Assembly: GCA_032821775.1 (NCBI GenBank)
Contig: JAVLRN010000001.1
Location: 806,001-870,000, forward strand
Direction: 5' to 3'
DNA from: Sanguinoderma infundibulare
Taxonomy: Eukaryota > Basidiomycota > Agaricomycetes > Polyporales > Polyporaceae
Length of the DNA stretch: 64,000 nucleotides
Positions 24,627 to 44,243 of this stretch are shown here, piece after piece; the stretch's first letter is position 1; every line of letters begins with the position of its first letter. The notes beneath the pieces were generated by a model. That model had not been told where the DNA came from. It did no database searches and saw nothing but the letters and a program-made list of their open reading frames with translations. The position numbers and the translations under genes were made by a program.

Positions 24627-24686
24627 CAGAAGATGTATTCCATTTGGATAATCTAAATACATTAACTCATGTACATCCTGGATAAT
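24627..24686 (+). repeat. Left terminal inverted repeat of the KDZ element
   Basis: This runs from CAGAAG to about 24686. It shares TTGG-TAATC-AAATACATTAAC and ATCCTGGATTA-like blocks with the inverted right end at 44177-44236. Confidence 0.85.
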
Positions 24687-24949
24687 CGTCCTCGATCGGA
24701 TTAACAACGCAGTAATTCAGTCGGTTTGACACACAATATAAAGTGTGATATTATCCCATCTAAACAAGCATTATCTGAAGGATGATCCGCTCGATTATCC
24801 TCAGGATCATCCACTATCTATCCTATGAAACACGACCATTATCGCATTTGTATGTGCGGATTAGCTACAAAGTCTCACAAGGATTATCCTACAGATTCAG
24901 ATGGATTATCCTACATGATGACAGATACACGGATTATCCGGTCTACAAT
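24687..24949. promoter_or_regulatory. Left subterminal motif cluster
   Basis: This stretch is dense with GGATTATCC, GGATAATC, GGATGATCC and GGATTAGC words in both orientations. The same words recur at the right end and I did not notice them inside the element. They are likely transposase binding sites. No gene lies here; the 750-aa gene on the minus strand ends at 24950. Confidence 0.65.
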
Positions 24950-27460
24950 CTACACTTTCTTACCTGCCCTCGCCCGCGTCTGCCGCTGATTCTTCAGAGC
25001 CTCATCAGCAGGGCTTCCGAGAGGGGCAGGCTTGGGGCACGTGGGGCGTCGAGACACGGCCGAAATGCTTTCAGGTTCGGCCTCGGCCGTCGACACCTTC
25101 TTCAGGCGTTTGGCTGCAGGCGCGCCCGAGCGGTGTTGCTTGCGCTTGCCAGTAGCCGACACCCCGCTAAGGTCTTCCTCTGCCGTGACCACGCTCGGAT
25201 CTCCATCTGCCTCACTGTGGTACTCTGGATGAGTATCAACCACCGCGGGGTGGGTGTTATTGCTCTCGACATGGGCATCCAGGTCCGCGTGACTGTCCGT
25301 GTTGCCTTTGTCGCGCGCGCAGTCCGCCTCGTCCGAGGTGCCTTCCTCGTGCGCACAGTCCGCCTCGATGTCCCGAGGCTCACCCGCTTCCACATTGATG
25401 CCTTGTGGCTCCGCCGCTGATGCATCCGTCATTGCACCGGCGTTCCCGCCCTCCCCACTGCCAGCGTTCCCCACACCAGCACCGCCACCCCCATGATCAG
25501 CTTGGCGATCATGATCGAGGAAAGGGTTCTCGATCGTCGCTTCGATGACGTCTTGCTCATCTTCGTCGGGGATTGTTGGCAGCGGCAGAGGAGGGCGAGG
25601 AAGGTGTTGCTTAGAAGGCGATGAGTGCACAGGGTAACGGCCTTGTGCGGGGCGTGGAGTTTTCGTAGGCGTTGTGTACACGGTTCGCATGATGGTGGTT
25701 GGGGTGGTCGGAGGAGGTCGGCTAAGGCGAGGAACACTGGACGACTGGGCAGTCGTCATCGAGACCCATCGAAAGGCGTCGTCTGTGCCTTGGGCTTCGA
25801 ACAGGTCGTGGTAGAGGATGAGGACGTGGTGGAAAGGACGCTCCGAGGGTTTGCCGCTGACGTCGCGGGTCCATCTTGATGGAATATATGGGGCGACAGC
25901 GGTCGCAAACTTGTTCCAGTCGAGGCCGTTCGGAAGCTCAATGCCGTGGTCGCCACAATACACTGTAGTACCCGATGTTAGCCGGACAAAATGGCGTGAA
26001 CCACGAGCACTTACGCCACATCGCCTCAAACCACACATCAAGCGTTGAACTTGCCTGACCGACAGTCCACTCCTCATTATAGGGCAGTAGGTTAGGAAGG
26101 CCGCTTTCGTCATAGTACAACTGCTCATCCTGGCGGACAGGATTCGGCGCTAGGAGGCGTCGTCAGCAAATATGCGAGACAACGTACAGGACGCCCTTAC
26201 GAAGATAGTCCTCATTAAAGCCACTCCACCGGCCTATCTCATCCTGCTTCGGCCCACCTTGATATGAATCGAACGACGGGGGATCTTCGACATCTTTCAT
26301 ACCGATCGTGTACCTGCGCGTAATCAACAAATGAAAGTACTGCGGAGTAATGTGAGAACTTACGATTTGTACACGATTTTTCCGTCCTCAGTTCGCATCG
26401 CAATGCGCAAGTGGGCGTGTGCAGCTCCGACTTGGTCTGGGCCAAAACCGAAGAAAGTCTGGAGGAGGTTGGCGAACATGAGCGGGAAGTCAACCTGGTT
26501 CCTGTAGGTACATGTTAGCTGTTCATGCTCTAGGTGAGGAGTGGGACTGACATACCTGTAGCATTGGCTCTCATCGTCAAGATTCTTCTGTTTTTTGTTC
26601 TCCGCTTTCTCCTCCCAGATCGCCTTCTCGCTTTCGGGGAGCACGTCGTAAAGTTCAGCGAGGGCGGTCTTGTGCGCGCCGATCCCGCCACCAAGTTTGT
26701 CCCTACACTGGTTGACGAGCTCCTTATTCTTGAGATACCACCAGCCGGAAGGACCACGCATGCGTTTCCGAAGGCTCTGCAGGAGGGGGGCGAGTGCGAG
26801 TTCAGTGGCAGAGGCTTGCGCCACAGAGCATGGTTCAGTAGACGGGATGGTGGCGGTAGGCTTGTCGCTGACCGCGTCGAGGCCCCGCTTCCCCTTCCAC
26901 TGTTGTTTGTGGTTTTTGAACCAATTGAAGAGGACCTAGAGGTAATGTCAGCGACATAAACAGGTGAAGTGTGGTATTCAATGTGCCTTGTCTTTGAAGT
27001 CCCTCGGCGTGTAACCCTCGAGTGGTCCCCACTTCTTGATAAACTTGTCCTTCGCCGCATCCCTCATCTTGCTTCATTCTTTTTCATCGACCGGGATCAT
27101 TTCGTCGAATGTCTTCTCGAGAAAGGCGAGCTGCTCGGGATAGTTGCCCCAGTTGAAGCGCTTCTTCTTCTCAGGCTTGTCAGTGGCTGGGTGTCCGGCG
27201 GGAAGCTTCGGCTTGGGTTTCTGGCCTCGCTTCTTATGGACCCGCTTCTTCTCTGTCTCCGAGTCTGTCGAGTCGGCGTCGGGGGCTTCATCCTCTGAGT
27301 CTACAGGGGCGGCTTCCTCCTCGGAGTTGGAGTGGTTGCCTGTGGCGGGAGTGGCAGAAGGGTCCGGCTCAGGTGTGGTGGCGGGGACGTAAACCTCGTC
27401 GCGCGCAGACTCGGAGTCGCTGGAATCGGGAATTCTGGGGAGCGCTGCACGGCGGGGCAT
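24950..27460 (-). pseudogene. KDZ cargo gene 1: 750-aa protein with homeodomain-like helix
   Basis: The start MPRRAALPR is at 27460. Five introns (26936-26986 with a GC donor, 26502-26555, 26314-26363, 26150-26200, 25963-26014) join six exons exactly in frame, giving 751 codons. One TGA (27074-27076, after VDEKE) interrupts exon 1. The order is a Ser/Asp-rich acidic N-terminus, a Lys-rich stretch, a W-x5-6-Y region with FNWFKNHKQQWKGK that resembles a homeodomain recognition helix (W-F-x-N), a helical segment (ELYDVLPESEKAIWEEKAE), a conserved-looking middle (CGDHGIELPNGLDW), and a long Pro/Asp/Glu-rich tail ending in basic patches. A DNA-binding role is inferred from the helix only. It sits next to the left end, transcribed toward it. 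Confidence 0.7.
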
Positions 27461-27941
27461 CGAGAACGTGAAGAAGAGGAGAGTGAGAGATGGGGGTTTG
27501 CAGTCAACGATGGTGGACAGAAGTGGACGCTTAACGGGACCATCTGTGCTGCGGCATATACTAATTAAGGCCAGAGTGGCGGAACAGGCGGGAGGTCGTG
27601 GCATACACAAAAGGAAGTACAATTACTGCAGACGCACAATACAGACCGAGACTGCATAAACACTATTGTATCCCCTCGGCAGTTATCAATGTGGCCGGTT
27701 CGAGCACGTTCGAGCGGCAAGTTCTTTTGGTTCGGCCAGAGGTACGGGAGCAGCAGCACCGTTAGCGGACATGGATAGCGCGCCATTTGGTCACCACGTC
27801 ATGCTCGTCCTCGTAGTCGATGAGTTCCTCATTGTCGTGAGCGCTCATTGTCGATGTCGGGTCGGACAAGCAAGAACGCAAATGCTAGGATGGACAAACG
27901 AGCATCGAAGCTACATGTATTACAGGGACATTCATAAACGA
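27461..27941. promoter_or_regulatory. Spacer between cargo genes 1 and 2
   Basis: This holds the 3' end of cargo gene 2 and the upstream region of cargo gene 1, both on the minus strand. No coding segment is convincing. I did not find the CCACAATTGTGG module of the other cargo promoters here. Confidence 0.45.
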
Positions 27942-29403
27942 CTACACGGTCAGGTCGATAACGTCGCCATCGGGGATCGCCCTGGCCTTGCCCTTACTCC
28001 GAGAACGCTGGACTTCATCCTCGGAATCCGAGATGTAGATGACATCACTCCGGGCCACCGGACCGCGCGCAATGTCTGTGTTCGAGGACAATTTGCCTGC
28101 TTTCTGAGGTCCAAAGTCGACATGCTCGTCGGCCTTCCGCTTGAGCGACTTATGAGAGGCGGTCGCGATGGGCGCATTGGCCTTGCTCGCGCGAGGCGTT
28201 GAGGGGCCCGCGCGCGCTACGGAGGGTGGCGAGCCACAGAAAATCTCCTCGAGTGTGTCCGATGGGTCCTCCCGCGCCCGGCCGACTGGGAAGCCGTGCA
28301 CATGATCGAGGAGGCTGCTAAGAGGTCGGACGCCTTTGGGATCGAAGGGAGGCTGGAGCAGTGGTTTCAGCATGTTGAGAGCAAGCATGCTACGAACTCC
28401 CGCGCGGCGAACCAAGACCGGCTGGCCACATGCGAGGACCTGATTGACAATGCAATCAGTCCATTCATCGAGGGCGGCGAGGTACATCTCGTAGCTGGGA
28501 CGGTTCCGGGCCGATAGGTCGAAGCCGAAGGCCTCGGCGACGGCAGGCTGCCAGAACCTGAATCGGACTTGCTTTTTTTTGGTTGTGTGCCCAACAGCAT
28601 TCGCTGAGATAGGAAGTTCCTCGTTCTGTCAAAGGTGTCAGCACGGTAATGGCGACCGGGAGAGAATTGGACTTACGTGATTGAAAGCATAGACCTTGAC
28701 TTCGACCTCAGGCCTCCGCGGGCGGCCCGGTCCCTTCAGGGAGCCTGTGCTGCCAGTGGTGGTTGGTGTCTTCATGGCGCGGGTCTTCAGTGTGGGGGTG
28801 CGAGGGCTGGGTGGACGGGCAAGGGGAGAGGATGGTGTAGAGGACAGACGCGAATCACTGCGGTTCAGTGTGAGACCCACGCGGTCCCATCGAGAAGGCG
28901 TCGGGGGAGGTTCGTGGACGGACCCCGCGCCGACGTCCCCAGTGAGCAGGATCCGCTCTCGGATCGAACGACAGAGGGCCACATTCGCCACGTCATGGTA
29001 GGGCGGCGGCTCGAGGTTCTCAAACTCCGAAAGTAGGTCTGCCCGTTTGTCTGCCATCATTTGGAGCGCGAGGGGCTTCCCGTGAAATCGGCAAGGTGGT
29101 TTGTGGGGACACTGGTGACAACATTAATAGAGCTGTTCGCAAAAAGGAAATGTCGATAGGACGTACGAATTCGAACACCAGCCCGATGTTGGCAAAGTCC
29201 TTTTGCCTGTAGCTTGCTTGAGCATGATGAAAGCAGCCCTGGGGGCAGTCGTGACGAGCGTACATCTGCATCAACTTAGACGGCAGGTAGGGCAGCGTCA
29301 GGTCACGAATTCGCATCTTCTCGGCCTCGGTAGGCTTAGGCATTTGGATGTAGAATGGAGGGGAGAGTGCAAAAAAGTGATTGCAGGACATGGGTTGGGT
29401 CAT
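27942..29403 (-). CDS. KDZ cargo gene 2: 451-aa protein with two SUMO-interacting motifs
   Basis: Three exons (29403-29167, 29111-28677, 28625-27942) joined by introns of 55 and 51 bp give 451 codons and a stop without interruption. The start is placed at MTQPMSCNHF; later ATGs, such as MPKPTEAEK at 29343, are possible. Residues about 50-90 hold a Cys/His-rich region (RHDCPQGCFHH ... CPHKPPCRFHGK) that could bind zinc. A Ser/Pro/Thr-rich linker and a folded-looking region (FRFWQPAVAEAFGFDLSARNRPSYEMY) follow. The C-terminus carries DVIYISDSEDE and ends in VIDLTV, both matching SUMO-interacting motifs (hydrophobic core beside acidic residues). This is one of the few genes in the window with no disabling change. 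Its function is unknown; binding to sumoylated proteins is inferred. Confidence 0.75.
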
Positions 29404-29557
29404 GTCTTTATACAGAGGCAGAGCCACAAAAGCACAAAAGAGCGTGGCCTGGGCTGCAGGGTCGCGCTTGGACCGAGGCCGTGCATTCCGGGACAAAGTG
29501 CTGGCGTGGAGAAAACCGGACCTCGAGGTCTGCAGCGACAATCGAGGCCCAGGGCAG

Positions 29558-32371
29558 CACCAGTACTTTCCACTCTGTTATTATAATTCCCCACAAGAGT
29601 GGGAAAAGGTCTGTGTATTATTAGGCCACAGTTTAATAAAACAATCTGTGGGCCAGTCTATAACAATCCAGCCAGCCCAGTCTGTTAATAAATTGTCTAC
29701 ACATTGTTATTGACCAGGGAGCCTTTCCCCAGGGCTGGGAACAGCATTTGTAGTTGTTTTATATTATTATGTCTGGGCCAGCTGTTGTGTTTGAATTGTT
29801 ATTGCTCTGCAGACTGGGTTTTGTTTATCTAATCAGTAGATAAGGACGACTTTTTGATATCTAATCTTAGCCTTATCTCTGTCCCCTTATCAGTCTGATA
29901 TGCTATGCCCTGCATCAATCTAATCTGCTGTGCTATTTTGGGCGCTTTTTTGCGATTTTGATGACCCAAAAGGGTAGGTGGGTGGGTGAGGCAGTAGGGG
30001 CACCAGGTAGGGGTACCTCCTGGGTCTATTGTGGGCTCAATATTGGGGCTATTGACTTGGTTCTTTTTGCAGTATGTTTGTATTGATAGGGCAAATCGAA
30101 TGACACCAAGATCATACTGATAGCTGCACTACACCTATTGATATGGCCTGTACAGTATTAAGGAAGAGAGGGTATTGCAGCTTGGTCAATTCTGGGGCTA
30201 TTCCCTTCATTCTTTTTGCATATGGTAGGTATGTGTTAGTAGATGTTGGGCATAGCATTCGTTTTGTGCAGTATCCCCTAGCAGTGCCTAGGAATGACCT
30301 GCACTGATCAGCCACTGGAATATTCCCAGGCCCATATCTTGGGACCCAGTGGGCCTATCACTGTCCCCTTGGTACTGTTGGAAAGAGGTGGATCAGGGCT
30401 TTCCAACGATATATAGCATGCCTTGGTCTGACCATTTGGAAATACCCCCACCTCCTTCCCCTCCTGCTCCAATATTGCCATCCACCCCCTGCCACAACCG
30501 TTAAGTGCCTTGACCTGAAACTTTGTATACATATACCAGGTATATATACAATGCTGTGTGTCAAATTTCATGGTCCACAGACTGTTCAAACCAATGGAAT
30601 AGCATTACCTTTCTGGAGCAGTCTTACCTACTATTGTTTCCTCAATATCTCCCCAGAAACTTCGTCTTTTTTCATGATCTTTTTTGTTCTATGTTACTGC
30701 TATATGGTAATATTCAGATCAAAAGAGAAATCCCTTATCAGGAGCCGCAACCCCTTGCAGCATTCTTATCAGTAGTTTTCCATCAATACCTACACTGTAT
30801 TATATTGCCTTCATGCACAAAGGATCAGACAGCGCCATTGAATAGAGCTTGAAAACGCCTTTCCAACGCATTTTAGATTATAAAATTCTGTCAACATTCA
30901 AGGGAGATATGGGGGAAAGGGTGCTAGAAGGCCAGTCAAGACACACAAGTACAGAGCTGTGCTGCCAATTCCGAGTGCAATCTTCTGCACCAACACCACA
31001 TATACCACCCTTTCCCCCATATCTCCCTTGAATGTTGACAGAATTTTATAATCTAAAATGCGTTGGAAAGGCGTTTTCAAGCTCTATTCAATGGCGCTGT
31101 CTGATCCTTTGTGCATGAAGGCAATATAATACAGTGTAGGTATTGATGGAAAACTACTGATAAGAATGCTGCAAGGGGTTGCGGCTCCTGATAAGGGATT
31201 TCTCTTTTGATCTGAATATTACCATATAGCAGTAACATAGAACAAAAAAGATCATGAAAAAAGACGAAGTTTCTGGGGAGATATTGAGGAAACAATAGTA
31301 GGTAAGACTGCTCCAGAAAGGTAATGCTATTCCATTGGTTTGAACAGTCTGTGGACCATGAAATTTGACACACAGCATTGTATATATACCTGGTATATGT
31401 ATACAAAGTTTCAGGTCAAGGCACTTAACGGTTGTGGCAGGGGGTGGATGGCAATATTGGAGCAGGAGGGGAAGGAGGTGGGGGTATTTCCAAATGGTCA
31501 GACCAAGGCATGCTATATATCGTTGGAAAGCCCTGATCCACCTCTTTCCAACAGTACCAAGGGGACAGTGATAGGCCCACTGGGTCCCAAGATATGGGCC
31601 TGGGAATATTCCAGTGGCTGATCAGTGCAGGTCATTCCTAGGCACTGCTAGGGGATACTGCACAAAACGAATGCTATGCCCAACATCTACTAACACATAC
31701 CTACCATATGCAAAAAGAATGAAGGGAATAGCCCCAGAATTGACCAAGCTGCAATACCCTCTCTTCCTTAATACTGTACAGGCCATATCAATAGGTGTAG
31801 TGCAGCTATCAGTATGATCTTGGTGTCATTCGATTTGCCCTATCAATACAAACATACTGCAAAAAGAACCAAGTCAATAGCCCCAATATTGAGCCCACAA
31901 TAGACCCAGGAGGTACCCCTACCTGGTGCCCCTACTGCCTCACCCACCCACCTACCCTTTTGGGTCATCAAAATCGCAAAAAAGCGCCCAAAATAGCACA
32001 GCAGATTAGATTGATGCAGGGCATAGCATATCAGACTGATAAGGGGACAGAGATAAGGCTAAGATTAGATATCAAAAAGTCGTCCTTATCTACTGATTAG
32101 ATAAACAAAACCCAGTCTGCAGAGCAATAACAATTCAAACACAACAGCTGGCCCAGACATAATAATATAAAACAACTACAAATGCTGTTCCCAGCCCTGG
32201 GGAAAGGCTCCCTGGTCAATAACAATGTGTAGACAATTTATTAACAGACTGGGCTGGCTGGATTGTTATAGACTGGCCCACAGATTGTTTTATTAAACTG
32301 TGGCCTAATAATACACAGACCTTTTCCCACTCTTGTGGGGAATTATAATAACAGAGTGGAAAGTACTGGTG
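29558..32371. repeat. 2.8-kb palindrome (foldback-like element)
   Basis: Two 1366-bp arms (29558-30923 and 31006-32371) are reverse complements around an 82-bp spacer (30924-31005). In every block compared I found no mismatch or gap; all mirrored positions sum to 61929. The ends read CACCAGTACTTTCC and its complement. AGTACT occurs on each side, so the insertion site may have been the palindrome CACCAGTACTGGTG with a 6-bp duplication. Open frames occur in mirrored pairs without known domains and are not called as genes. It could be a foldback transposon, a duplication copied by gene conversion, or an assembly artefact. Confidence 0.85.
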
Positions 32372-32404
32372 GGGGCAGAGCGTGAAGTTCTGTGTGGAGA
32401 CGAG

Positions 32405-32800
32405 GAACACCTGTTAAAAACGAGAGGGGAAAATGGCAAAGTCAGCGGACACATAGAGTTCGCAAATGCACTGGGGGAAGGCCGCTCCTTCAAGGTACTG
32501 AGTGAGGTACAGCTTGAGCGAACCAGCGAAGCTGTTCACTATCTGGCTGTAGAGATGGGAGTGTTAGGAGACTCAATGCAACGAGACAGAACCATCGCGC
32601 TTACGTCTGGGCAGCAGAACCGACACGCGACACGGAAATACCGACGTTGATGGCGGGACGGACACCGGGGAAGAAGAGCTCAGCCTCCAAGAAGATCTGA
32701 CTGTCGGTGCTACAGATGACGTTCGTCGGGATGTCGGCAGAGCGCGCGAGGAACTGGAGAGGAGCAGCGTTGGGTGTCGGGAAGGGGATTGAAGGCGACC
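32405..32800 (-). pseudogene. ATP1: Captured fragment of mitochondrial ATP synthase subunit alpha
   Basis: On the minus strand an exon encodes [20 protein letters not shown] followed by [12 protein letters not shown] and VSRVGSAAQ. This is the conserved block of the F1 alpha subunit around the IPTNVISITDGQIFLE and [17 protein letters not shown] motifs. A 58-bp GTAAGC...CTACAG intron (32547-32604) follows SAAQ, and the next exon starts with a matching but degraded segment (FAGSLKLYLTQY). The rest of the gene is absent: no nucleotide-binding Walker A motif, no N- or C-terminal domains. Because the intron is kept, capture was from genomic DNA. The fragment lies downstream of the leftward half of the promoter module at 32868. 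Confidence 0.85.
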
Positions 32801-32867
32801 AGAGGTACGAGCCAGGCATATGAAGGAGATTGACAGAGAGCAGGCTGCAAAGATCGGGCTGGGAGGG

Positions 32868-33071
32868 GACTGGAAACGACGAAGTCCACGCCTGACTTAC
32901 GCCTGCCACAATTGCCACAATTGGAGCGTCGGGGCGCAGCTGGCCCGGCCCACGTGGCAGTTGTGGCGGGCATGAGTCAAGTTGGCCGGGCCGGCTGTGC
33001 CCCGATGCTCCAATTGTGGCAATTGTGGCGGGTGTAAGTCAGGCGTGGACTTCATCGTTTCCAGTCGCCTC
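32868..33071. promoter_or_regulatory. Divergent promoter module (inverted repeat)
   Basis: About 70 bp at 32868-32937 recur inverted at about 32998-33071, separated by about 60 bp. Each arm has the order CAATTGTGGCAATTGTGG, then a GTAAGTCAGGCGTGGACTTC block, then TCGTTTCCAGTC, reading outward. One arm faces the ATP synthase fragment and the other the RING gene. A third copy precedes cargo gene 5 at 37099. The palindrome CCACAATTGTGG in that copy is a likely protein-binding site. The promoter role is inferred from position and repetition. Confidence 0.65.
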
Positions 33072-33594
33072 CCAGCAGCACAACTCCCGCCTTGGCTCTA
33101 CTCGTCATCTCGCCCGTCGTCCCGCCCGTCAACCCCGTACAACAGACCGCGCGGACCCACCCAACCGCAACCCTCATCAACTTCAAGTTCGGCTTCTGTC
33201 CCAAACAGGTACTTGCTCATTTGGTCTGGACGCGTTCGCGTTGTGTGCCCCGCCTATGCCCAGGATATGTCACACCCCGCTTGCTTGTGCGCTGACCATG
33301 ATTTTCATTGCTTTCAGGTGCATTCCTTGCCTACCAAGCAACATTCTTCGCGCTGACCGCGCACAACTTAGCTGGGTGCGTGCACGCTATCAGTCTTTCT
33401 TCGCTATTGACCTACACTAACTCACTTGCTCGCAGCCATCCATCAAGATCACCCATCCCCTCCCCCACATACTTCATCACGGCTCCAGTTTGTCGCTGCT
33501 GACCACTGGACGCTTGTGAACCCGATTTGACTTTGCGTCGATCGGTTTGCCTCCCTCCGCCTTGCCGGCCCCAAGTCTCTGCCGCAGCATTAGA
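33072..33594 (+). other. RING gene leader
   Basis: No coding segment is convincing. The sequence parallels 37168-37556 in front of cargo gene 5: both have an early GC-rich stretch, a GGTAC donor-like site, and a common block containing CTCCAGTTTGTCGCTGC and GATTTGACTTTGCGTCGATC. They look like duplicated 5' leaders, possibly with introns. Confidence 0.5.
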
Positions 33595-34947
33595 ATGTCC
33601 ACCACTCCGAGTCGTTGGCCGTCCCTTTCGTCTTCTGTTCCCAACTCATCGCCGTCAAACACCCCTTCATCGTCTCTTAACGCCATTATAGCACTCTGCC
33701 TATCCAAAACGCTATGCCCCCCGCTCATGTTACAGCGCACAAAAGCACTCATTGACCTGCACCGCGTGCCCATGTCGTCGCAGGGCCCTCCAATGTGAAT
33801 GCTGGCCATGTCGCGGTCGACAAAGATGACCCTTCTCGCCAGAGGCGGGCCGTCCAGCGCAACATGCGCCCCACTCGTACTTTGGCATGGAAAACCACTC
33901 ATCGAACTGCCCCGCATGCCCAGGTCGTCGCAGGGCCCTCCAGTGTGACTGCTGGCCATGTCGTGAACGATGAAGATGCCCCTTCTCGCCAGAGGCAGGC
34001 CGTCCAGCGCAACGCTCTCAGGCAGCGCTCAAATCAGAGGGCCAGAGGGCCGCCTCCATCCGAAATCATCGAGATCTCGTCGGACAATGAGCTGCCCCCA
34101 AGGCAGTCTACGGGCCCCGTTAATGCGATTGAGAAGCGATTGAAGGAGGTCGAGGACGTGCGTCGCTCTCCGCTTTATGCAACTTAGGATAAGTGGCTGA
34201 CATTGGCTATTCTCGGCACCCGTTTAGGAGAACCGGAAGTTGAAGGCGGATCTTGCGGCTTCCAGGCCTGTGAGTACAGGATTTCACTTATGCTCGTACC
34301 GTGGTGCCTTAACAGACGATGTCCCCAGACGCAACCACCTCCCGTACCAGAGGTGAAGGTCCCCACCCCAGCCCCAGATGTGGCGACCGAGAAGGTAAAT
34401 GTGTGTTCTCTTGGAACAGCATGCCTTTCTGACCCACCATACAGCTATTGTCCACCATCGGCGATCATGTCAGCTGTGGAATTTGTCACGAGAAGATGTG
34501 GAGCGCATACACGTACGTCCGACTGACTGGCTGCCACCCTAATGCAGAACTCACCAACTCCACACCCTTGCTCACAGGCTCGCGTGTGGCCACACCTTCT
34601 GCCGCGGATGCCTCCAACAGTATTTCCAGACTGCGTACATCGATTATATTGCTACCCACCCGACATACAATGTGCAGGCGTGGAATCGCCGTCATTGGCA
34701 GGTCGAGCTCGCTCGTGTCGATGCAATCACTACCACCTCCCACCCGCCATACTCATGCCCGGTGTGTCGGGTGCTCATCCGCGCCAAGCCGGCGGAGAAC
34801 TTTGTCGTCAAGCACATCGTCGAAACCGTCGCAGCTGCGCAGGGCGAAACCCCTCTGCAGGAGCCCACGCGCACCGTCCAGCAGGCTTTGGAGCGACCTT
34901 TTGATCGCTTTTTCCCCGTGACCTTGTACGATCCGAGTCCTGCGTGA
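33595..34947 (+). pseudogene. KDZ cargo gene 3: RING-finger protein with SUMO-interacting motif
   Basis: The downstream exons join exactly: introns 34158-34227, 34270-34328, 34395-34444 and 34513-34577 link a region with EIIEISSDNE (a SUMO-interacting motif) to a short coiled coil (RLKEVEDENRKLKADL), a Pro-rich linker and a C3HC4 RING. In the RING, CGIC, then CGHTFCRGC, then CPVC after a long insert supply eight ligands. The C-terminus is at 34947. The 5' part is doubtful: ATG 33595 opens a frame that must shift to reach the rest, ATG 33714 meets a TGA at 33753, and a clean start exists only further in (about 33862). A 150-bp unit is tandemly duplicated in frame (about 33735-34034). A RING plus SUMO-interacting motif suggests a SUMO-targeted ubiquitin ligase. 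Confidence 0.7.
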
Positions 34948-36176
34948 CTGGCCCGTGCCTCCGCTGTAAGTCGTCAACCAGGTTGTTTGATAATGTCTAA
35001 TCACCCGACCCTAACCCTATCGTGATTAGCTCTGTATGTCGCCGACAATCGTCTGGTGTCGTCTATCCCTGCATGTGTATCCTTGTGCTGCGCATTGCGC
35101 TCTCATAATGCTCGACCACATTACGCATCTTGTTGTATATTCGTCGTTGTGCATACCTTAATTTTTGCTTGCATACTTGACGTGCCATGCCTCCCTCCCC
35201 TTGGTGACGAATTCGGACCAGGGGCTTCTTGTAATCGAAGTGTGAGATTATTCTGTAAAGACCTGTGTACTCGTACAAGATATATTGCTTCAACGATGCA
35301 TTGATGAGCTTATGACACATGGCCGGATGATACCACCGGGTCGTGTGCGATCTTCACCTCTGAATGCAGATGGGTGCATGTTTGGCAGCCGATGACGGTC
35401 ACACTCCGCACTCGCAATACACTGAAAGCACAACGACGAAGAGGCATACATGATACTCATCCACGCAGGTGCTGTGCGTTCGTCGCGGTCGCAAAAGAGC
35501 GGGCGCTGAGGGTTAGGCGCCGTGGGTGTCCATGTCGAATGGGCATGACCGCGCCCGCCTCTCTGAGCCTCTTGAACTCTCTCTCCACTGATGACTCCTT
35601 TCACAGCGCGAATTTCATCAAGCAGACGATTTGAAGGCCACGACAGCCGTGAACGAAAGGTATGTAAGTCGGCCTGACCACGACCGCGATATGTCCGATT
35701 TTGCTGACATACCGCTCGACATATCCATAGCGTCCGCGTGCGCATTATGACACCACGGCCCGCACCCTCGACCCGTCGCACTTGTCCTTCCGAGGAACAG
35801 GGCTGCCATGACCGCAGGGTACCTGTGCCGTTTCACCACCGTTCGCGATATGTCGTATTCTGCCGACATTGCTTCTAAAACAGGCATATGTCTGCACAGC
35901 GATCAAACATGGACATAGACTGTTGCAACACAACTGGTACTCTATATATTGTATTGTATTGAATCCTATGAGTGCCTGCTGCTGTACATACCAGCACTGT
36001 GACATAGAGAAACATACCAGTCAACAAGTCTTAATCTCTCGCGATCACCACCCTCATTCCTGGGCCCAACTCTCTCACGCCCGCAGCAAACTTCCTAGGC
36101 GGCACCCACTCACTCCTCTGCTTCTTCCTGCTCTACCACCACCATCCATTATCTTCAGACCTCCCCCCATTCGAAT
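34948..36176. other. Intergenic region in the KDZ element
   Basis: No gene is recognised in 1.2 kb. The similar words CGATATGTCCGATTTTGCTG (near 35687) and CGATATGTCGTATTCTGCCG (near 35848) form an imperfect direct repeat about 160 bp apart. The part after 36040 is CT-rich and precedes cargo gene 4, as fungal promoters often are. Confidence 0.45.
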
Positions 36177-36819
36177 ATGCTTTGCAGCAAGCTTTCCCAG
36201 CTTCTCTCTCTCCTCTCCCTGTTCACCCTCTTCAGCGGTGGGACGCGTTCCACTCTGAAGCCCATTCTCGCGCTGCACACCTCCAAATTTGTGGTATGTA
36301 CTGCCTTTATGCCCACTATTCAAGTACTTACGCTCTGCAGCCCATCATGAGTGTTCTCGGAGGTGAAGGGTGGGCACGGCTCAACCTGTCCATGCGCGAC
36401 TTCCTCGCGGTGCGTGCTCCAGCCTCTAGCCTCCATCTGTGGCCCCACTAACTCGCTTTCAGGCCATGGCTGCGATTGGCTTCCGCCTCGTCGAGGACAA
36501 GCCAAACGTGGCCTTTTGGCTCATCAGGCTGGGCGAAAGCCTCAATGAGCGCAAGCACGCGCTCTATATGAAATGGCCGATCAATGACGACTTCGGCACG
36601 CACAAGACTGCCTAGTGAGTCTCCCTCTTTCTCCCTCGTCTTTCATGTGCAGTACTAACAGCGTGTTTGTGCAGCATCACGGACCGCGTCCGCGAGCTCT
36701 ATGGCTGGACGGTCTCGACGTTCCGCAAGATCCCCATGTCCGGCTTTGAGGACGACCTCTACCAGTTCGATTCAGACGAGGCGTACAAGACCTGGATCAA
36801 CTCCGACATTTTCGTCTAG
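36177..36819 (+). CDS. KDZ cargo gene 4: 160-aa hypothetical protein
   Basis: ATG 36177 begins MLCSKLSQLL. Three introns (36294-36340, 36410-36462, 36615-36674) join exons of 117, 69, 152 and 145 nt in frame to TAG at 36817, giving 160 residues without interruption. The first 20 residues are Leu/Ser-rich (LLSLLSLFTLF) and could be a signal or anchor segment. The rest is soluble-looking, with GFRLVEDKPNVAFW and ITDRVRELYGWTVSTFRK, and an acidic C-terminus (DDLYQFDSDEAYKTW). No known domain is recognised. Clean splicing in a neighbourhood full of broken genes suggests it is expressed or was until recently. Confidence 0.7.
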
Positions 36820-37098
36820 TGGAGTCGTCCTGTTGTTGCGGTCACCGCACACTTAGTTCTTGAGCTGTAAATACAATGTGGTCTCTGTTCCGCGACACAA
36901 TAAGCATGAATATTCTTTCAAACTCTATGTTTTCGCCAACATTTTGCGTTCAGTAGAACGTGACATTGTCTGTCACATTTTGTTGGCCTCAGAATGCAGA
37001 CCGAAATGTCAAAATTGGGCGCCTGGGGAACAGCGTGGTCTGGATTTACCCGTAGCCGGCCTGCCTGCCACAATTGTGGCATTGGGGCGCTGCCGGTC
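36820..37098. other. Spacer before cargo gene 5 promoter
   Basis: This holds the 3' flank of cargo gene 4, with ATAAGC and AATATTC words. From 37062 it leads into the promoter module, including a first CCACAATTGTGG palindrome at 37069-37080. Confidence 0.5.
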
Positions 37099-37167
37099 TG
37101 CCAATTGCCACAATTGTGGCGGGCGTGAGTCAGGCGTGGACTTCGTCGTTTCCAGTCACCTCCCGCC
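37099..37167 (+). promoter_or_regulatory. Third copy of the cargo promoter module
   Basis: CAATTGCCACAATTGTGG, a GTGAGTCAGGCGTGGACTTC block and TCGTTTCCAGTCACCTCCC match the rightward arm at 33010-33071. It lies about 400 bp before the ATG of cargo gene 5, the same arrangement as for the RING gene. Confidence 0.7.
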
Positions 37168-37556
37168 GAAACAACTACCGTTCATCGTCCCGCCCATTGT
37201 TCCCGCACTACAGCATCGACTCCGGCATCACGTTCGCCTTCGTCCTCTTCATACCCATACTTCATCATTCCTCAAGCTGACTCGACGTCGTCTCCAGGTA
37301 CGCATCTCTTTTACGGTATGCCCTCGTCACTGCTCGACTGAGTACGTGACCCTCCTCGCTATTGACAAATACTAAATACCATACTCACAGCCGCCCATCA
37401 AGATATCTCCCCTGTCCTTAATCACAGCTCCAGTTTGTCGCTGCAGACCACTGGACGCTCGTGATTCCGATTTGACTTTGCGTCGATCAGTTCGCCTCTA
37501 TTGGTCCTGCGTCCCCCGCTGTAATCTGAACAACTCGCCCTAATCTGGACAACTCC
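37168..37556 (+). other. Cargo gene 5 leader
   Basis: This is related to the RING gene leader (33072-33594). The shared block near 37425-37495 contains CTCCAGTTTGTCGCTGC and GATTTGACTTTGCGTCGATC. There is no coding evidence; an intron in the leader is possible. Confidence 0.5.
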
Positions 37557-39549
37557 ATGCCCCAGTTGCAAGTGCAAAACAAGGACACGTGTACGCTCCG
37601 TTGGAATGATGCGCTGGTCACCGGCAACACTGCGAACAACGAGTGGGCCATTAGCTCGCCCAACATGTCCTTCATTCCTGAGCCCCCCGTCGGCATTGTT
37701 GAAGTTGTGCTGCAGAAGGATTGTAGATATGGTTTTATAGACCCTATTCAATGGCCACAGACGTTCTCGCATGGTTTCGAATACCTCGCCGCTATTTTAC
37801 GGCGTGTACTGGACCATCACCCCCTTGCCCCAATCTGGTGGACTCCACGGGAGGATGATTTCGAGCTGATCGAGGGATCAGTTATCAAGTGCCTTGGTTT
37901 ATTGCGGCATGCAGCAGTCGAGCCGCTTGGTGCACTCGTCAACCGTCTTTCCGAGAGAGTCCGCGCGATTCCTCATCGCAACCAGCGGCTTACCCGGATG
38001 GAGATCCGCATGCGGCTTGCCCGGGACCGACTTTTATTGTTCCCGTGTACTTGGCGCGATGCCTGCCTGCAGGTCTCCCTGACGCAACGATTCTGGCTCA
38101 TGGCTCAGGCGTTCCTCGACTTCTACGCCATCTATCCTCCTTCCGGAGGACCTCGCCCTGTGGATCCCCGATTCATGGGCACTTTCACGACTGATCCGGA
38201 GGCCGTCCAGCAACTTTTCATGGCCGGTATCCCTGTGTGGTGGCTCCGTCTCGATCTCTCGATCCTCTCCGATACCTCGGTTTGCGCCATCGTGCCTCTC
38301 ACGCCATCTCATGTCATCTGCATGGATGTTGCCCCTGGTTACGGCGAGCGTTTATACAGGGGTCTCATCGGTGACAAGCACCTCGAAGTCATGTGTCGAG
38401 GAGGTCATACCTATCAGGATGTTTCTCGGACGATTCTCCTTGCTGTGCACTCCGATCACGGCTACCCTTCCTCCCCAAGTCAGAGGGATCACAAGGCCAA
38501 TGCCATTGAGAAAACTGCCCACCGCGGTCCATCAGCGTCATGAGGAGGAAAACCGTCCAAGCATCAACAAATCCCAAAGAAGCTTCCCTGTGAGTGTCGC
38601 TGGATTCATCGTGCTGGGTGATAATACTGACTTAACCTCTGCAGATGCGCGGCCGCACGGCACCCAAGTTCGCGGGGTCAACAAGTTCGAGACCTACAAA
38701 CACGAATGGATGCCTCCGCCAATCAATGTCTGGGAGCGCGTCATGTCGCACGTTGATCTTTCCAAGCCGGCCCGCCCTATGGCCGAGATCTGGAGGTATT
38801 GGATTCCCGAGCCCGCCATGTTCCTCCGCCCTGAGACCGTGGAGCGTCGGGAACGTTACATTTACAACTGGCTATGCATTCGACATGCTTGGCTGTACTT
38901 CCTGCGACTTCGCGAGGCACGCGCGATGCGCGTCGCTACGCAATGGTGGTGCGACTTCCTGTACGGCGACACTGGGTGGACAGAGATAAACCATCAAACA
39001 CGGAATGGGCAACGTCAGGACCAGATGGCGCATGTTTTCAGCATCGCCTTCTCGAAAACCGATTTCGATCCGACCAGTACGACCACACCCTTCTGGTTCG
39101 GTAGGCGCGTCACCACTGTGACCTCCGCTTGCTGCCCGAGGATCGTGTGGGAGATCTGCGAGCTTGGATTCTGGCATGAGCTCCTCGCGCTTGATCGCTT
39201 TCTGTTTACCGGCCGAACGGAGGGTTTCGATGAGGACCAGCGAGAGGATCTACTTGCGGGCGTTTTCTTCGACCACTCCCTGTTTTGTGTCCGTGACCTG
39301 CCTGACGCTCTGGTCGGGTTAGGCCACCCAACATGGTCATCTCGCGTTCCCTACCTGGATGCTTTTCGGCGCGTCATGCTGCGTTGGCCCCGTTGCCCAC
39401 CAACGTTCTTTGAAGACGGCCCCATCACGACAGCCCTGTCAGAGCAGGAGGTTCTGCGTCGCGAGGAGAAACTTGTGTCGTTCTATGTTAATACCTTTTT
39501 CGAACAGTCGGGACGGGCCCCGATCATCCCTTTTTGCTTCCCCATGTAA
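37557..39549 (+). pseudogene. KDZ cargo gene 5: 645-aa hypothetical protein
   Basis: ATG 37557 opens MPQLQVQNK. A 55-bp intron (38590-38644) joins exons of 1033 and 905 nt in frame, giving 646 codons, but a TGA at 38541-38543 interrupts near the end of exon 1. The protein is rich in Trp, Arg and Pro, with FGFIDP-like IDPIQWPQTF, RFMGTFTTDPEAVQQL, GIPVWWLR, and in exon 2 a Tyr/Trp-rich segment (YIYNWLCIRHAWLYFLRLREA). No catalytic motif is recognised. My impression is that similar proteins occur in agaricomycete genomes, but I cannot confirm this here. It shares its promoter and leader with the RING gene. Confidence 0.7.
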
Positions 39550-39970
39550 TCATCAACATGTAGTACCGCACTCTGGTGCATGGACGAATACTGTTTCTTG
39601 ACCCTGTTCATGTTCATTGTCTTCGAATGCACCGTCATCTGCCAGTGTCTCCGCGCCTTGACCGAGTTCCGCACTATGGCTGTAGCTCCCTCCCGCGTCT
39701 ATTGTAACAATGTTATGCCCAACGAACAATGAATGCCCTTGCTCTTTTGCCATCGGTACCCGCTTGACGGCCCCAAATGAATGAACTGTTTATTGTGCTG
39801 AACGCTTTGCCCTGCACAGCACCGATCATCTGATGCACATGCCCGATGACAATGCAGCGAGCCACCGACCTGGACGATGCGACCGTTGCCGCTCAAGCAC
39901 ACTGCAACGATTTTGTGGTTCGCATGTACTCTAACTTTTCCCATCTCGTCTCCCTCGCTCGTCCTGCTTC
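39550..39970. other. Spacer between cargo gene 5 and transposase
   Basis: No gene is recognised. The cargo promoter module is absent, so the transposase appears to have a different promoter from cargo genes 3 and 5. Confidence 0.5.
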
Positions 39971-42900
39971 ATGTCATCCTTTAGGATACCGAAACGCACC
40001 GCTCGCGGCGTTCGTGAAGGCGTCGACCTTCATCGTCCTCATGCTCACCATGTCAGCCATGTTTTGCATGGCAATGGGAAAGCCGAGGTCGTAAAGAAGA
40101 CTCTGGAATATCGATCGGGGCAGTCATTGCGGAAGCGTCTGCGTGCGACTTCTCCTGAACGCGACGGCATGGACGTTGACTGGGTCGACATACCCATGTT
40201 CGAGCCCTCCTCCAACCACAGATCAACTGCGACCCCTCCTGATCCCCCTGCATCGTCAATTGCTGAACTGAACGCAACCACGCCGATGGCCGCAGACGCG
40301 AACGCCTCCACGACGACTTCAGGACAACCTCCGATAGGCAAGAAAACCAAGGTACGCGTGTCTGCCATATGTTCTCCTCTTATCACGCTCAATGATCTTG
40401 GTAGTCTCGAACAGTCGCCGCACAGATCGAGCAGTGGCTCCCATCCGAAAGCAGCGTCCTACGCCGACTCTTCTCGCACGAGTACGCAAAGGACATCGGC
40501 ACCCCGTGTTCCTGTGGGCAAATGTCAGCCAAACGCAAATACCGTTGTCTGGATTGCTCCGCCGCCCCCTCCATGTGCCAGACCTGTATCGAGCAAATGC
40601 ATTGGCATCTCCACTTCCATTGGATCCAACGCTGGAACGGCAAATTCTTCGAGCGCATCGACCTCTGGCATCTCAACCACGCCATCTATCTCAGTCACCA
40701 CGATTCCCCTTGCCCCACAATCACCCCGGCGGCCTTGAAACCTTCCCAAATCGTCGTCGTCCATACCAACGGTGTCCATCGATGCCTCGTCCACTACTGT
40801 CATTGTGGTGAGGACGATGGCGAGGATTACGAGCAACTCATTGCCAGCGGGCTCTGGCCTGCAAGCAAGAGTCATCCGGAGACTGCATTCACGGAGGAAC
40901 TGATGAAGGAGTGGCACCTCATCTGGGACATCTCGCACGGCAGCGCGCAAGACTATTTTCGAGTGAAATGTCGCCTCGGGAACAACTCGAACCCAGAAGT
41001 GGTTGAGGTAACTTCTTTCATCTTGACATACAATCTGTTCAGCCACTAACCGCAGCCCCTTTAGGATCGTACTCGCGAGCTCAATGTCGCCGCTCGACTC
41101 TGGAGACACTACGCAATGGTCAAACGCTCTGGACGCCAACATGGTGTCGTCATTCCACATTACAATCCGCGTGCAATCACGCTACCTTGTGTTGCCTGTC
41201 CATGGCCTCACTTCAACCTCCCGCCCGATTGGCAAACCGCGACGCCCAATCATCTTAAGTATGTTTCGATCTTCGTAGCACATATACCACACTAATTGAC
41301 CAACCTTGCTAGGTATATCTACCGTATCATCATGGGTTGTGATGGCAACTTCAGCCTGCAGAAGAAGTCTAAGTGTGACGACCCCAACGATCGCAGTCTC
41401 GCGATGGGTGAAGGGTATTTTATCCACCCCGAAACAATGCGACCGTTGATGAAAAAAAAGTGGGCCTCCCACATGATCGTACGTGCCACCTAATTAATGC
41501 GTTTTTGGAGTCTAACCACCTGGACCAGGAGGAGACCTGTAGTGGCTTCAAGGTTGCGCGGTCCCAATGTCTCAATAAGTTCCATTTCACCGACTTCAGT
41601 GGCATCGTCGGTACCCTTTGCAAACATCTGGTTTTTCGGCCTCAGGCGGTCGTGAACACCCTTGGAGGGGAAGCGTGCGTCGTTGACTCCCCGTGTGACT
41701 GCGACCTTCGCTAACTACGACATTCACAGGTTAATATTCTCAGATGCGTCTATATATAGCGCACTGCAAGGGACAGAAGAACACCAACAGAGGGCGATGA
41801 GCTACGACGTTATTTGCATAATGATTCGACACATTCTCGAACGCTGGGCGGACTATTTTCCAGACGCGCTTGCGATGCTGGAGAACATGCTTATGATTTT
41901 GCTGAAGATGCACATGTACGCTCACAAAGACGTCTGTCAGGCCGTCTACTCTCTCGCGTATTCGGTAGGGTTCGGTCTTGACCACGGTGAAGGCGTCGAA
42001 ACCCCTTGGGCAGACTTCAACATTGCTGGGCTTTCCACATGGGAAATGAGTGGTGGCAGTCGTGAGGACGCCCTCAATTCTATCATCAACTATTGGAACT
42101 GGAAAAAGACCGTTGGAATGGGTGAGTAGTTATTAAATGTCGTCCGCCTTCCGTACTGATGCCATCAATCCCAGCTAACTATCTGGGACGCAAGCTGCCC
42201 GAGGCATATGCTGGTCAGCGCCGAACGACGAAGTACCTGGCTGGCCTTTCGGCCCTCGCTGGTCCGAAGAACGTTGCTTCGTGGCTTGCGCTCCCGTTCG
42301 ATCCCAATGCGCCAACGCCTATCACCTTCCGCACCAAGGAGCAGGCATTTGAGCAGAGTCCGTTTCTGGTGAATCAGTCACAGTGTACGTCCCGTTTCCG
42401 GGTTTTAGCGAGATAACGCAGCATGCTAAATTACCGACTCAGTGCCTTCTGCGAAGCAAGCGTACAACGCACTGGTCGAGGGTCACCGGGATGAGAGCGC
42501 GAAGACACATGTGTGCCGCGCTGTTGCTCACCTGCGCAAAGACCACGCCGACTTCTTGATCACTGGGCTGGAGCTTGAGGGCTGGATGTAAGTCGTCTTT
42601 CGGGCCCGTATTATAGCCGAATCGAGCCCTCAATGATGATAAATTTGGTCCAGGCTCGATCTACAAGAGCACGACAAGCAGAAGAAGAACGTCAGCGAAA
42701 ATGGCACGATCGTCGATGAGAATACGAACGCTCGGATGACATGGAGCGGCTGGCGTAGGAAGCTGGACAAGTGGCGCGTATTTCAAGCTAAGTATATGCC
42801 ATGTCTCGGAATCACCATCCCCTCGACTGCTCACAACCTCACGGACGATCCCTGCCACCGCCGTGGTTCCGGGCACAAACACGATTCGGAATCTGATTCT

Positions 42901-43983
42901 GATTCCGACAATGAAGATGAACCTAGTGTCCCTTCGACAACACCATCACCACCCGACGAAGAAGTCCTGGGCCTCCCATCCGACTTCAACAACGACGACC
43001 GCAAGCTGTACGAACTGAACCTTCTCGCTAAGTATGAGGCAAAACTCCGTGTCGGGCAGGCATTCGACCAGCTGGAGAAGCTTCGCGAGGCCGTCAAACA
43101 CCTATCCGCATTCATCAAAGATAAGAAGGTCAACGCCCATGCAGTCGCTGACAATGTCCGCAGCAACGACGTGAGCAAGTTCAGCGTCGCGTACTGTCAA
43201 AAATTGGCCAAACAGTACAACCACAACTTCGACCGCATCATCACCCTGCATGGCATGCCGGGCTCTCTCGCTCGCTCGGATCCGGCTTCTCGCCTGCAAC
43301 GCATCGACCTAGCAAATGACTTGAAGATCACGAATCTCAAGAAGGCGCGCGAGCAAGGTGATCACGCGTGGTCAGGATCCTGGATTTGGACTGTATTCGA
43401 AGATGTGATGGGTTGCACTGATCCCGACAGTGTCAAGGAAACAGGAAGCGCGCCCTCTGGCAAGGGGAAGGGAAAGGGCAAGAAGAAAATTGTGACCTCC
43501 GACATCTACACGTCATGGTGTAAGTGGTTCATCAATCAATCCTAAGAATGCGATTGACCAGATGCTACTAGTCAACCGCGCGCAATGGTTCCAGGCGTGG
43601 CAGGAGAAGATTCGTTACAACGAGGCGGTGAACAAGCTTTGTGCAGAGTTCCGAGCGACAGTTGCTGGATTCGCTGCTTGGGCAGAGTTATGGAAAGGCG
43701 CCGCCGAACGGGAGGACTTGGAACCGGGTGAGCGCGCGTATGCCTGGCAGCACCATGCCATGTTCGAGCGCATGAGCAGGGAGGCTCAAGCTGAGTACAA
43801 TCGCACTCGGAAGGCAGAGGTACCGGCAGAGCAGTTGGATCACACGCGGGTGCGTAACCAGCTACCTCCCCATGGCTATTTGCTGACCACTATGATTTTT
43901 AGTCGCTGCATTCCTCTCTCCAGAAGCAGGTCTCGGACATTAATGCATGGGAGGATATTCTCAAACGGCTCGAACACAATTGA
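39971..43983 (+). CDS. KDZ transposase (CxC2 type), 1153 aa
   Basis: Eleven exons join exactly in frame with no stop: introns are 40352-40404, 41008-41064, 41259-41312, 41479-41528, 41675-41729, 42122-42174, 42385-42442, 42588-42653, 43520-43571 and 43850-43902. The N-terminal part is basic and Ser/Thr-rich. The CxC2-like Cys/His cluster follows (CSCG, YRCLDC, MCQTCI, then HWIQRWNGKFFERIDL). The RNase H-fold core has YIYRIIMGCDGNF, MSYDVICIM and HGEGVETPWADFN, which supply the expected Asp, Asp and Glu, then YWNWKKTVGM. The C-terminal part is Lys-rich with acidic Ser repeats. The size fits KDZ transposases. It is the likely enzyme for this element's movement, and the element may still be autonomous. 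Confidence 0.92.
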
Positions 43984-44176
43984 GTAGTATTTGGATTATC
44001 CACTGTTGTTGTCCGATGATTATCCTGTAGTTAATCGCGCGTATCATCTTTTTTGACATCTCTAAAATCCATTGACCTTGGTGTGATAATACATGGATAA
44101 TCCGCCGGATTAGCTACATGATGAGGGGGGACTCTAGAGACCTCTCCAAAATTCCGACACTAATCCTGGATTAAGC
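43984..44176. promoter_or_regulatory. Right subterminal motif cluster
   Basis: GGATTATCC, GATTATCCTG, GGATAATCC, GGATTAGC and a TCCTGGATTA palindrome cluster here, mirroring the left end. These are candidate transposase binding sites. Confidence 0.65.
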
Positions 44177-44236
44177 GTAATCCAGGATTGACGTTAGTTA
44201 ATGTATTTGGATTAGCCAAATCTAATACAGTCCCTG
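44177..44236 (-). repeat. Right terminal inverted repeat of the KDZ element
   Basis: Read inward from 44236 it begins CAGGGACTGTATTAG and matches the left end as described. CTTTTCC, the duplicated target, follows at 44237-44243. Confidence 0.85.
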
Positions 44237-44243
44237 CTTTTCC

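What the first reader, a model, noticed from the sequence alone, without database searches (positions are those of the whole stretch)
24627..44236. A 19.6-kb cargo-carrying KDZ transposon with its exact insertion site
The ends, a 7-bp duplication and exact restoration of the interrupted integrase frame define the element to the base. The KDZ transposase joins 11 exons without a stop and keeps its Asp-Asp-Glu motifs, so the element may be autonomous. KDZ elements are known from agaricomycetes, but a transposon of this size with at least five other gene-like units is unusual. It resembles the cargo logic of Starship elements while using a DDE enzyme instead of a tyrosine recombinase.
Basis: partly seen in the sequence, partly recalled or inferred. 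Interest (0 to 1): 0.92.

Follow-up and report, generated by a model that had tools for sequence, protein, structure and literature searches.

The report
Large KDZ transposon with accessory genes
This is a real, precisely bounded 19.6-kb jumping gene of a known fungal class; its extra genes look more like parts of its own machinery than passengers that help the host.

Summary
Window 24627-44236 is a KDZ-superfamily DNA transposon inside a retrotransposon integrase, with a 7-bp duplication, CAG..CTG ends and imperfect ~50-bp inverted repeats. Two further full copies (C6, C4) share the ends and have their own 7-bp duplications; seven paralogous retrotransposon copies show the empty site. The 11-exon transposase (1,146 aa) is open and under purifying selection (dN/dS 0.14); each sister copy has one stop there.

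Giant KDZ elements with accessory genes are in print, and this genome also holds a ~34-kb KDZ family. I support four other genes, not five. They occur in all three copies. One, without a PDB fold match, is linked to KDZ transposases in other polypores; another resembles an HNF1-type homeodomain. This favours element machinery over Starship-like cargo. Autonomy is doubtful: the homeodomain exon has a stop in this copy.

Best lead: GGATTA/TAATCC lies almost only near the ends (43 of 44 sites in three copies within 450 bp), and the homeodomain-like helix carries the Lys-Asn pair recalled for TAATCC-binding homeodomains.

The parts
24627..44236 (+). whole KDZ element, CAG..CTG, 19,610 bp (transposase on + strand)
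   Evidence: ends shared by 3 of 3 genomic copies, each with a 7-bp duplication; 7 paralogous empty sites
24620..24626 (.). left target-site duplication CTTTTCC
44237..44243 (.). right target-site duplication CTTTTCC
24634..24683 (+). left terminal inverted repeat core (the similarity begins at 24627)
   Evidence: 50 nt, 84%; 38 of 50 from the outermost base
44180..44229 (-). right terminal inverted repeat core
24627..25076 (.). left subterminal region with GGATTA/TAATCC sites
   Evidence: with the right side, 12 of the element's 13 sites
43787..44236 (.). right subterminal region with GGATTA/TAATCC sites
24953..27460 (-). homeodomain-like plus HMG-like protein gene, multi-exon (approximate model); the homeodomain exon has an in-frame stop in this copy
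   Evidence: Pfam homeodomain below cut-off; homeobox chains in PDB at E 0.036/0.063; HMG_box weak; two homologs in Ganoderma leucocontextum; stop seen
27942..29111 (-). gene 2: unknown protein ending in SIM-like motifs (VIYISDSEDE, VIDLTV; motif recalled); approximate model
   Evidence: open in C1 over 372 compared codons, dN/dS 0.29-0.41; in all three copies plus a rearranged relic at C4:957 kb; no Pfam match
29558..32371 (.). nested 2,814-bp near-perfect palindrome (arms 1,369 nt, loop 76 nt), CACC..GGTG, 7-bp duplication with one mismatch
   Evidence: absent from the C6 and C4 copies
33864..34947 (+). RING-finger gene with coiled-coil-like stretch and SIM-like motif (EIIEISSDNE; motifs by eye); two inverted copies in C6 and C4, one here
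   Evidence: PF13445 29.4 bits over cut-off 25.2; models; copy number
37557..39549 (+). accessory ORF (approximate model; exon joint near 38.5 kb uncertain), a polypore family without Pfam or Foldseek match
   Evidence: 36 homologs; dN/dS 0.21-0.45; model of homolog P0005 pLDDT 79.6, pTM 0.81, no Foldseek hit at E<=0.001
39971..43983 (+). KDZ transposase, 11 exons, 1,146 aa; D 41341-41343, D 41806-41808, E 41998-42000
   Evidence: PF18758 132 bits, PF18803 CxC2 74 bits; exons, splice sites, open frame; acidic residues

Best explanation
The element is a cut-and-paste DDE transposon of the KDZ superfamily. Shown: its transposase gene, matching ends and 7-bp duplications in three copies, an empty-site match in seven paralogous targets, and purifying selection on the transposase. 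Inferred: the transposase binds the inverted repeats and/or the subterminal GGATTA/TAATCC sites, cuts the element out whole and joins it to staggered target cuts 7 bp apart. Inferred: the accessory ORF, the homeodomain/HMG-like protein and probably gene 2 are element-encoded helpers (end recognition, complex assembly, or escape from host silencing) rather than host-benefit cargo. The RING/SIM protein may act on SUMO- or ubiquitin-linked silencing or stability (weakest inference). Copies then decay by CpG transitions, as expected of cytosine methylation. In the genes compared, no copy keeps all open: C1 has an open transposase but a stop in the homeodomain exon; C6 has an open homeodomain exon but a stop in the transposase; C4 has both stops. 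If the helper is required, movement would now depend on supply in trans.
For: KDZ and CxC2 domains far above cut-offs. Three full copies with shared ends and distinct 7-bp duplications. Seven unbroken paralogous empty sites and an open joined frame. Transposase dN/dS 0.14 for C1 vs C6 and vs C4 over 978 codons, bootstrap 0.11-0.19 against C6. Accessory ORF dN/dS 0.21-0.45 (bootstrap against C6 0.14-0.33 and 0.26-0.59 for its two parts); homeodomain/HMG exons 0.25-0.40 (0.14-0.88 and 0.26-0.65); gene 2 0.29-0.41 (0.26-0.68). 12 of 21 own-genome loci of the accessory-ORF family lie within 10.4 kb of a KDZ match, five of them being this family's own copies and relic. GGATTA/TAATCC: 12/13, 10/10 and 21/21 within 450 bp of the ends (for C1 P about 1e-15 if placed evenly). 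C6 vs C4: 346 transitions, 297 at CpG, and 8 transversions in the outer blocks.
Against: No transposition was observed and no RNA evidence was available. Gene models other than the transposase are my own approximations; the start and intron of the homeodomain gene and the joint in the accessory ORF are uncertain. The RING gene shows dN/dS 0.94-1.15, so it gives no sign of being kept by selection and could be a passenger. Between C6 and C4 the ratios are high for several genes (transposase 0.66, second part of the accessory ORF 0.74, HMG exons 0.74). 4 of 6 transposase hits, including the best (G. sinense, contig length 2,256,307), and 1 of 2 homeodomain hits share no contig length with a listed accessory-ORF hit, and the linkage in other species rests on that listing, not on DNA. 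Helper functions are unproven.
Confidence: 0.88

Rival explanations
1. Starship-like logic: a DDE element that picks up varied host genes as cargo that may benefit the host.
For: Several non-transposase genes are carried; the RING segment varies in copy number and orientation between copies and evolves near neutrality; relatives of the accessory ORF also occur far from KDZ matches (9 of 21 loci).
Against: All four genes are in 3 of 3 copies; the accessory ORF is linked with KDZ transposases in two other polypores; no metabolic, resistance or host-like gene was recognised by Pfam in the ORFs and models scanned.
Confidence: 0.1
2. A composite of adjacent, independently mobile pieces (transposase unit beside separate elements) that only looks like one element.
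For: Accessory-ORF relatives also lie away from KDZ matches; a nested palindromic element is inside.
Against: Three copies at unrelated sites have identical outer ends and one duplication each around the whole; C6 and C4 align over 19.3 kb at 96%.
Confidence: 0.03
3. A decayed, immobile element: all copies are relics and nothing moves today.
For: Stops in the transposase of C6 and C4 and in the homeodomain exon of C1 and C4; CpG-type decay.
Against: The C1 transposase is open over 11 exons with GT-AG introns and all three copies have exact duplications.
Confidence: 0.35

Closest known systems
Kyakuja (KDZ) transposons of Agaricomycetes, Kojima 2025, PMC12730594 (text parts 1-4 of 7 and passages read)
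   Same: KDZ transposase, 7-bp target-site duplications, 5'-CA..TG-3' termini, reported from Polyporales among other orders
   Different: The two Laccaria families described there have no TIRs and encode TET/JBP; this element has imperfect ~50-bp TIRs and no Tet_JBP match in its three copies
Giant KDZ elements of Ectocarpus, and the mobile 31.7-kb KDZ element of Chlamydomonas that the same paper cites, PMC12477816 (passages read)
   Same: KDZ elements well over 10 kb; the paper says of its giant families that many carry additional genes, most have nested insertions, and the transposase is frequently pseudogenised
   Different: Algae; gene content not compared here
KDZ1-KDZ3 of Cryptococcus neoformans, PMC12810828 (passages read)
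   Same: KDZ transposase with a CxC cysteine cluster and TIRs; mobility demonstrated there
   Different: 9.2-11 kb, TIRs of 139-241 bp, duplications of 8 bp (4-8 bp for KDZ2 and KDZ3), CxC1 rather than CxC2
~34-kb TET-linked KDZ family in the same genome (C2:4712246-4746099 and others)
   Same: KDZ transposase, large, subterminal repeats, target-site duplications
   Different: CACCCC..GGTG ends, 8-bp duplications in 5 of 6 copies with both ends seen, a Tet_JBP match about 19 kb from the KDZ match in five copies, other subterminal motif
Starship elements (recalled, not compared by sequence)
   Same: Large, multi-gene, fungal
   Different: Starships use a tyrosine recombinase and carry variable cargo; here a KDZ DDE transposase and the same genes in every copy

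Membership tests
KDZ superfamily | KDZ transposase domain | tested here: met
   PF18758 132 bits (cut-off 26.6), profile 1-217 of 217, plus CxC2 PF18803 74 bits
KDZ superfamily | D-D-E acidic residues | tested here: met
   D, D, E in CDGNFS, SYDVIC, GEGVET; that these are the catalytic ones is recalled, not derived from a call
KDZ superfamily | 7-8 bp target-site duplication | tested here: met
   7 bp in 3 of 3 copies
Kyakuja clade | 7-bp duplication and CA..TG termini (PMC12730594) | tested here: met
Kyakuja clade | no TIRs (stated for the two Laccaria families) | tested here: not met
   imperfect TIRs, 38 of 50 from the outermost base; hence not filed as Kyakuja
Kyakuja clade | transposase groups with named Kyakuja sequences | not testable with these tools
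   no named reference sequences at hand. In an own-genome tree of 105 residues it stands apart from seven loci that lie 2-3 kb from a Tet_JBP match (28-31% identity); 13 of 21 KDZ loci given entered that tree, seven gave no match to the query and one matched too short a stretch
TET+ KDZ | TET/JBP gene inside the element | tested here: not met
   PF12851: 29 matches in the genome, none inside the three copies; divergent (PE-type) TET could be missed
Starship | tyrosine-recombinase captain gene | tested here: not met
   the recombination gene is KDZ; Pfam scans of the ORFs and models given reported no tyrosine recombinase; other stretches were not scanned
Starship | cargo that differs between related elements | tested here: not met
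   same four genes in 3 of 3 copies; RING copy number, a central inversion and the nested palindrome differ
Homeodomain (HNF1/HMBOX1-like) | Pfam homeodomain above gathering score | tested here: not met
   20.3 and 15.8 bits vs 22.9 for two splice choices; no match for the pieces of P0037 and P0038
Homeodomain (HNF1/HMBOX1-like) | three helices with W48-F49-x-N51 in helix 3 (numbering recalled) | tested here: inconclusive
   aligned to HMBOX1 chains 4j19/2cuf at E 0.036/0.063 with WFKN under WFAN; three helices at block pLDDT 67-88 in homolog P0037; fold matches listed include no homeodomain

The most novel reading that the evidence does not exclude
A two-component KDZ system: besides the transposase, the element encodes an HNF1-type homeodomain protein whose helix 3 carries Lys50-Asn51, the pair recalled for TAATCC-binding (Bicoid/Otx-type) homeodomains, and the element's ends are rich in exactly that site, GGATTA/TAATCC (43 of 44 sites in three copies lie within 450 bp of an end). 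The helper would mark the ends for the transposase or control its transcription. Together with the orphan-fold accessory ORF it would be a conserved multi-protein transposition module.
Probability: 0.25. Interest if true: 0.75.

Novelty: new member of a known kind. Interest (0 to 1): 0.5.

Why it matters
It is a KDZ family defined to the base, with copies, duplications and empty sites. That gives a usable reference for telling element-encoded helper genes from passengers in large fungal DNA transposons. If the homeodomain/subterminal-site match is real, it says how a transposon of this size marks its ends, and it can be tested in vitro.
Full report
What was checked. The window is G000:C1:806001-870000 of an unnamed fungal genome of 48.9 Mb in 87 contigs. 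The named protein relatives of the element's genes are mostly from Ganoderma and other polypores, so the host is probably a polypore close to Ganoderma; it was not identified further.

The boundaries. The sequence at 24627 begins CAGAAGATG and at 44236 ends ACAGTCCCTG, with CTTTTCC on both sides. A 50-nt inverted repeat at 84% lies just inside the ends; from the outermost base 38 of 50 positions match. The left 200 bp has six matches in the genome, the two ends of three elements. After fetching the other two, C6:790183-809348 (19,166 bp) and C4:1080337-1099636 (minus, 19,300 bp) proved to be full copies with their own 7-bp duplications, GTGAATC and CCGACAG. C6 and C4 align over 19.3 kb at 96%; C1 differs from them by 9-12% in the two outer blocks. 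I joined 340 bases of left flank with 317 of right flank, leaving out one duplication. The result reads through in one frame, in parallel with a neighbouring retrotransposon of the window. In the genome this joined stretch has 20 matches, of which 7 run from end to end at 83-92%; the window's own site appears as two half matches. These are paralogous empty sites. The left flank holds an integrase zinc-binding domain and the ORF before it an RNase H domain of reverse transcriptase; the right flank alone gave no Pfam match. That the retrotransposon is of gypsy type is my reading.

The transposase. The + strand gene 39971-43983 has 11 exons, 1,146 codons before the stop, no inner stop, and 10 GT-AG introns of 50-74 nt. 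The domain match is unambiguous: KDZ PF18758 132 bits and CxC2 PF18803 74 bits (made with an earlier reading of the first exons, the domain-bearing exons being the same). The acidic residues fall in CDGNFS, SYDVIC and GEGVET; that these are the catalytic ones is recalled. C1 against C6 or C4 gives dN/dS 0.14 over 978 codons (bootstrap 0.11-0.19 against C6), while C6 against C4 gives 0.66, and each of C6 and C4 has one in-frame stop.

The other genes. (a) 37557-39549, + strand: 36 homologs among the 7,998 candidates scored, 57% identity at best, the named ones from polypores; no Pfam match. A model of homolog P0005 is confident (pLDDT 79.6, pTM 0.81) but finds no Foldseek match at E<=0.001 among solved structures. 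dN/dS is 0.21-0.23 for the first part and 0.40-0.45 for the second. In the own genome I counted 21 loci of this family, 12 within 10.4 kb of a KDZ match; five of the 12 belong to the three copies and to a rearranged relic at C4:936-958 kb, and 9 lie further away, up to megabases. It has a homeodomain-like part (Pfam 20.3 or 15.8 bits against a cut-off of 22.9; HMBOX1 chains at E 0.036 and 0.063) and a weak HMG-box-like part. dN/dS is 0.25-0.40 with wide bootstrap ranges (0.14-0.88 and 0.26-0.65). The homeodomain exon has an in-frame stop in C1 and C4 and is open in C6. (c) 27942-29111, - strand: no known domain, tail with two SIM-like motifs (recalled), present in all three copies and in the relic, dN/dS 0.29-0.41. 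(d) 33864-34947, + strand: RING finger over the Pfam cut-off with a SIM-like motif. C6 and C4 have two inverted copies, one of the C4 copies with a stop, and the segment beside lies the other way round in C1. dN/dS is 0.94-1.15, so nothing shows that it is kept by selection. That makes four genes besides the transposase.

The nested insertion. 29558-32371 is a 2,814-bp palindrome, arms 1,368 of 1,369 identical in C1, loop 76 nt, CACC..GGTG. It is absent from C6 and C4. A second copy at C9:2456773-2459586 is 99% identical and has a 7-bp duplication GGGTCTG; in C1 the duplication has one mismatch (AGGGCAG/GGGGCAG). The ORFs that look like extra genes at 30.3-31.6 kb are its two mirrored arms. 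Its CpG observed/expected ratio is 0.19, against 0.99 for the rest of the element.

Ends and a possible partner. GGATTA or TAATCC occurs 13, 10 and 21 times in the C1, C6 and C4 copies, and 12, 10 and 21 of these lie within 450 bp of an end (for C1 the chance is about 1e-15 if sites were placed evenly). Outside the element the window has 0.16 per kb. C4 has expanded one block into an array of 12-bp steps, which inflates its count. In the homeodomain-like piece, WFKN aligns under WFAN of HMBOX1, so the residue at the place of position 50 is Lys and is followed by Asn; P0037 and P0038 also have K-N there. That Lys50 homeodomains prefer TAATCC is recalled, not from a call. I give the reading that this protein binds the ends a probability of 0.25.

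Decay. Between C6 and C4 there are 346 transitions, 297 of them at CpG, and 8 transversions in the outer blocks. This is the pattern expected of deamination of methylated CpG. It fits a host that methylates these copies, but methylation was not measured, and the copies are not depleted of CpG overall (observed/expected 0.99-1.05).

A larger relative. Search of the genome with KDZ and Tet_JBP profiles gave 87 and 29 matches. Many Tet_JBP matches lie 2-3 kb from a KDZ match; another set lies about 19-25 kb away or further. Following the second set, I found a family with ends CACCCCAGG..CTTAGGTG: C2:4712246-4746099 (33.9 kb), C10:350692-384929, C12:68987-102630, C18:186295-220886, and longer, interrupted copies on C3 and C6; a C4 copy showed only the right end. 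Duplications are 8 bp in C2, C10, C18, C3 and C6 and 7 bp in C12. The C6 copy of the window's element sits inside the C6 copy of this larger one. The 19.6-kb element is therefore not the largest KDZ here. The inner part of the larger element was read only in pieces of the C2 copy.

Comparison with what is known. Kojima 2025 (PMC12730594, parts 1-4 of 7 and passages read) reports 7-bp duplications and CA..TG ends without TIRs for two Laccaria Kyakuja families, and TET genes in several KDZ families. [quoted passage not shown] The Cryptococcus paper (PMC12810828, passages) shows mobile KDZ elements of 9.2-11 kb. A Marasmius paper (PMC9674265, passages) mentions elements of up to about 42 kb in its repeat library without naming the class in what I read. 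In searches that pair KDZ with cargo, Starship, Ganoderma, HMG, homeodomain or accessory genes I saw no description of this element or of a KDZ homeodomain partner in the listings and in the passages read; most listed papers were not opened and most subscription journals are not in that library.

Verdict. The element is a new family of a known kind, large KDZ transposons with accessory genes. The Starship comparison is not supported, because the gene set is constant among the three copies and at least the accessory ORF and the homeodomain-like protein have relatives in other polypores that appear linked to KDZ transposases or to each other. Autonomy is open: the transposase of this copy is open, a possible helper gene is not.

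Noticed in passing
G000 C2:4712246-4746099; C10:350692-384929; C12:68987-102630; C18:186295-220886; C3:3927561-3984419; C6:777513-865437: A ~34-kb TET-linked KDZ family, about 100% identical over the 3.1-kb right end in four copies, 8-bp duplications in 5 of 6 copies (7 bp in C12), CGACC-type repeat arrays near both ends.
   Followed up: partly
window 29558-32371 and G000 C9:2456773-2459586: 2,814-bp near-perfect palindromic element (arms 1,369 nt) with 7-bp duplication, CACC..GGTG ends and very low CpG (0.19 observed/expected); mostly one-armed relatives at 84-86% on C2, C3, C4, C6, C13, C14.
   Followed up: partly
G000 C4:936116-958304: Rearranged fourth relic of the window's family (accessory ORF in two pieces about 13 kb apart, gene 2 present), with another KDZ match between the pieces.
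   Followed up: no
window 35163-36900: Stretch conserved at 86% between C1 and C6/C4, inverted relative to them, for which no gene model was found.
   Followed up: partly
L012 (left subterminal region of the C4 copy): GGATTA/TAATCC sites spaced 12 bp apart from about offset 151 to 271 of that copy, an expanded array not seen in C1 or C6.
   Followed up: no
window 11.4-12.9 kb and 54.2-55.1 kb: Further retrotransposons: RNase H and reverse transcriptase domains; the right flank of the window has CpG observed/expected 0.50 against 0.98 on the left.
   Followed up: no
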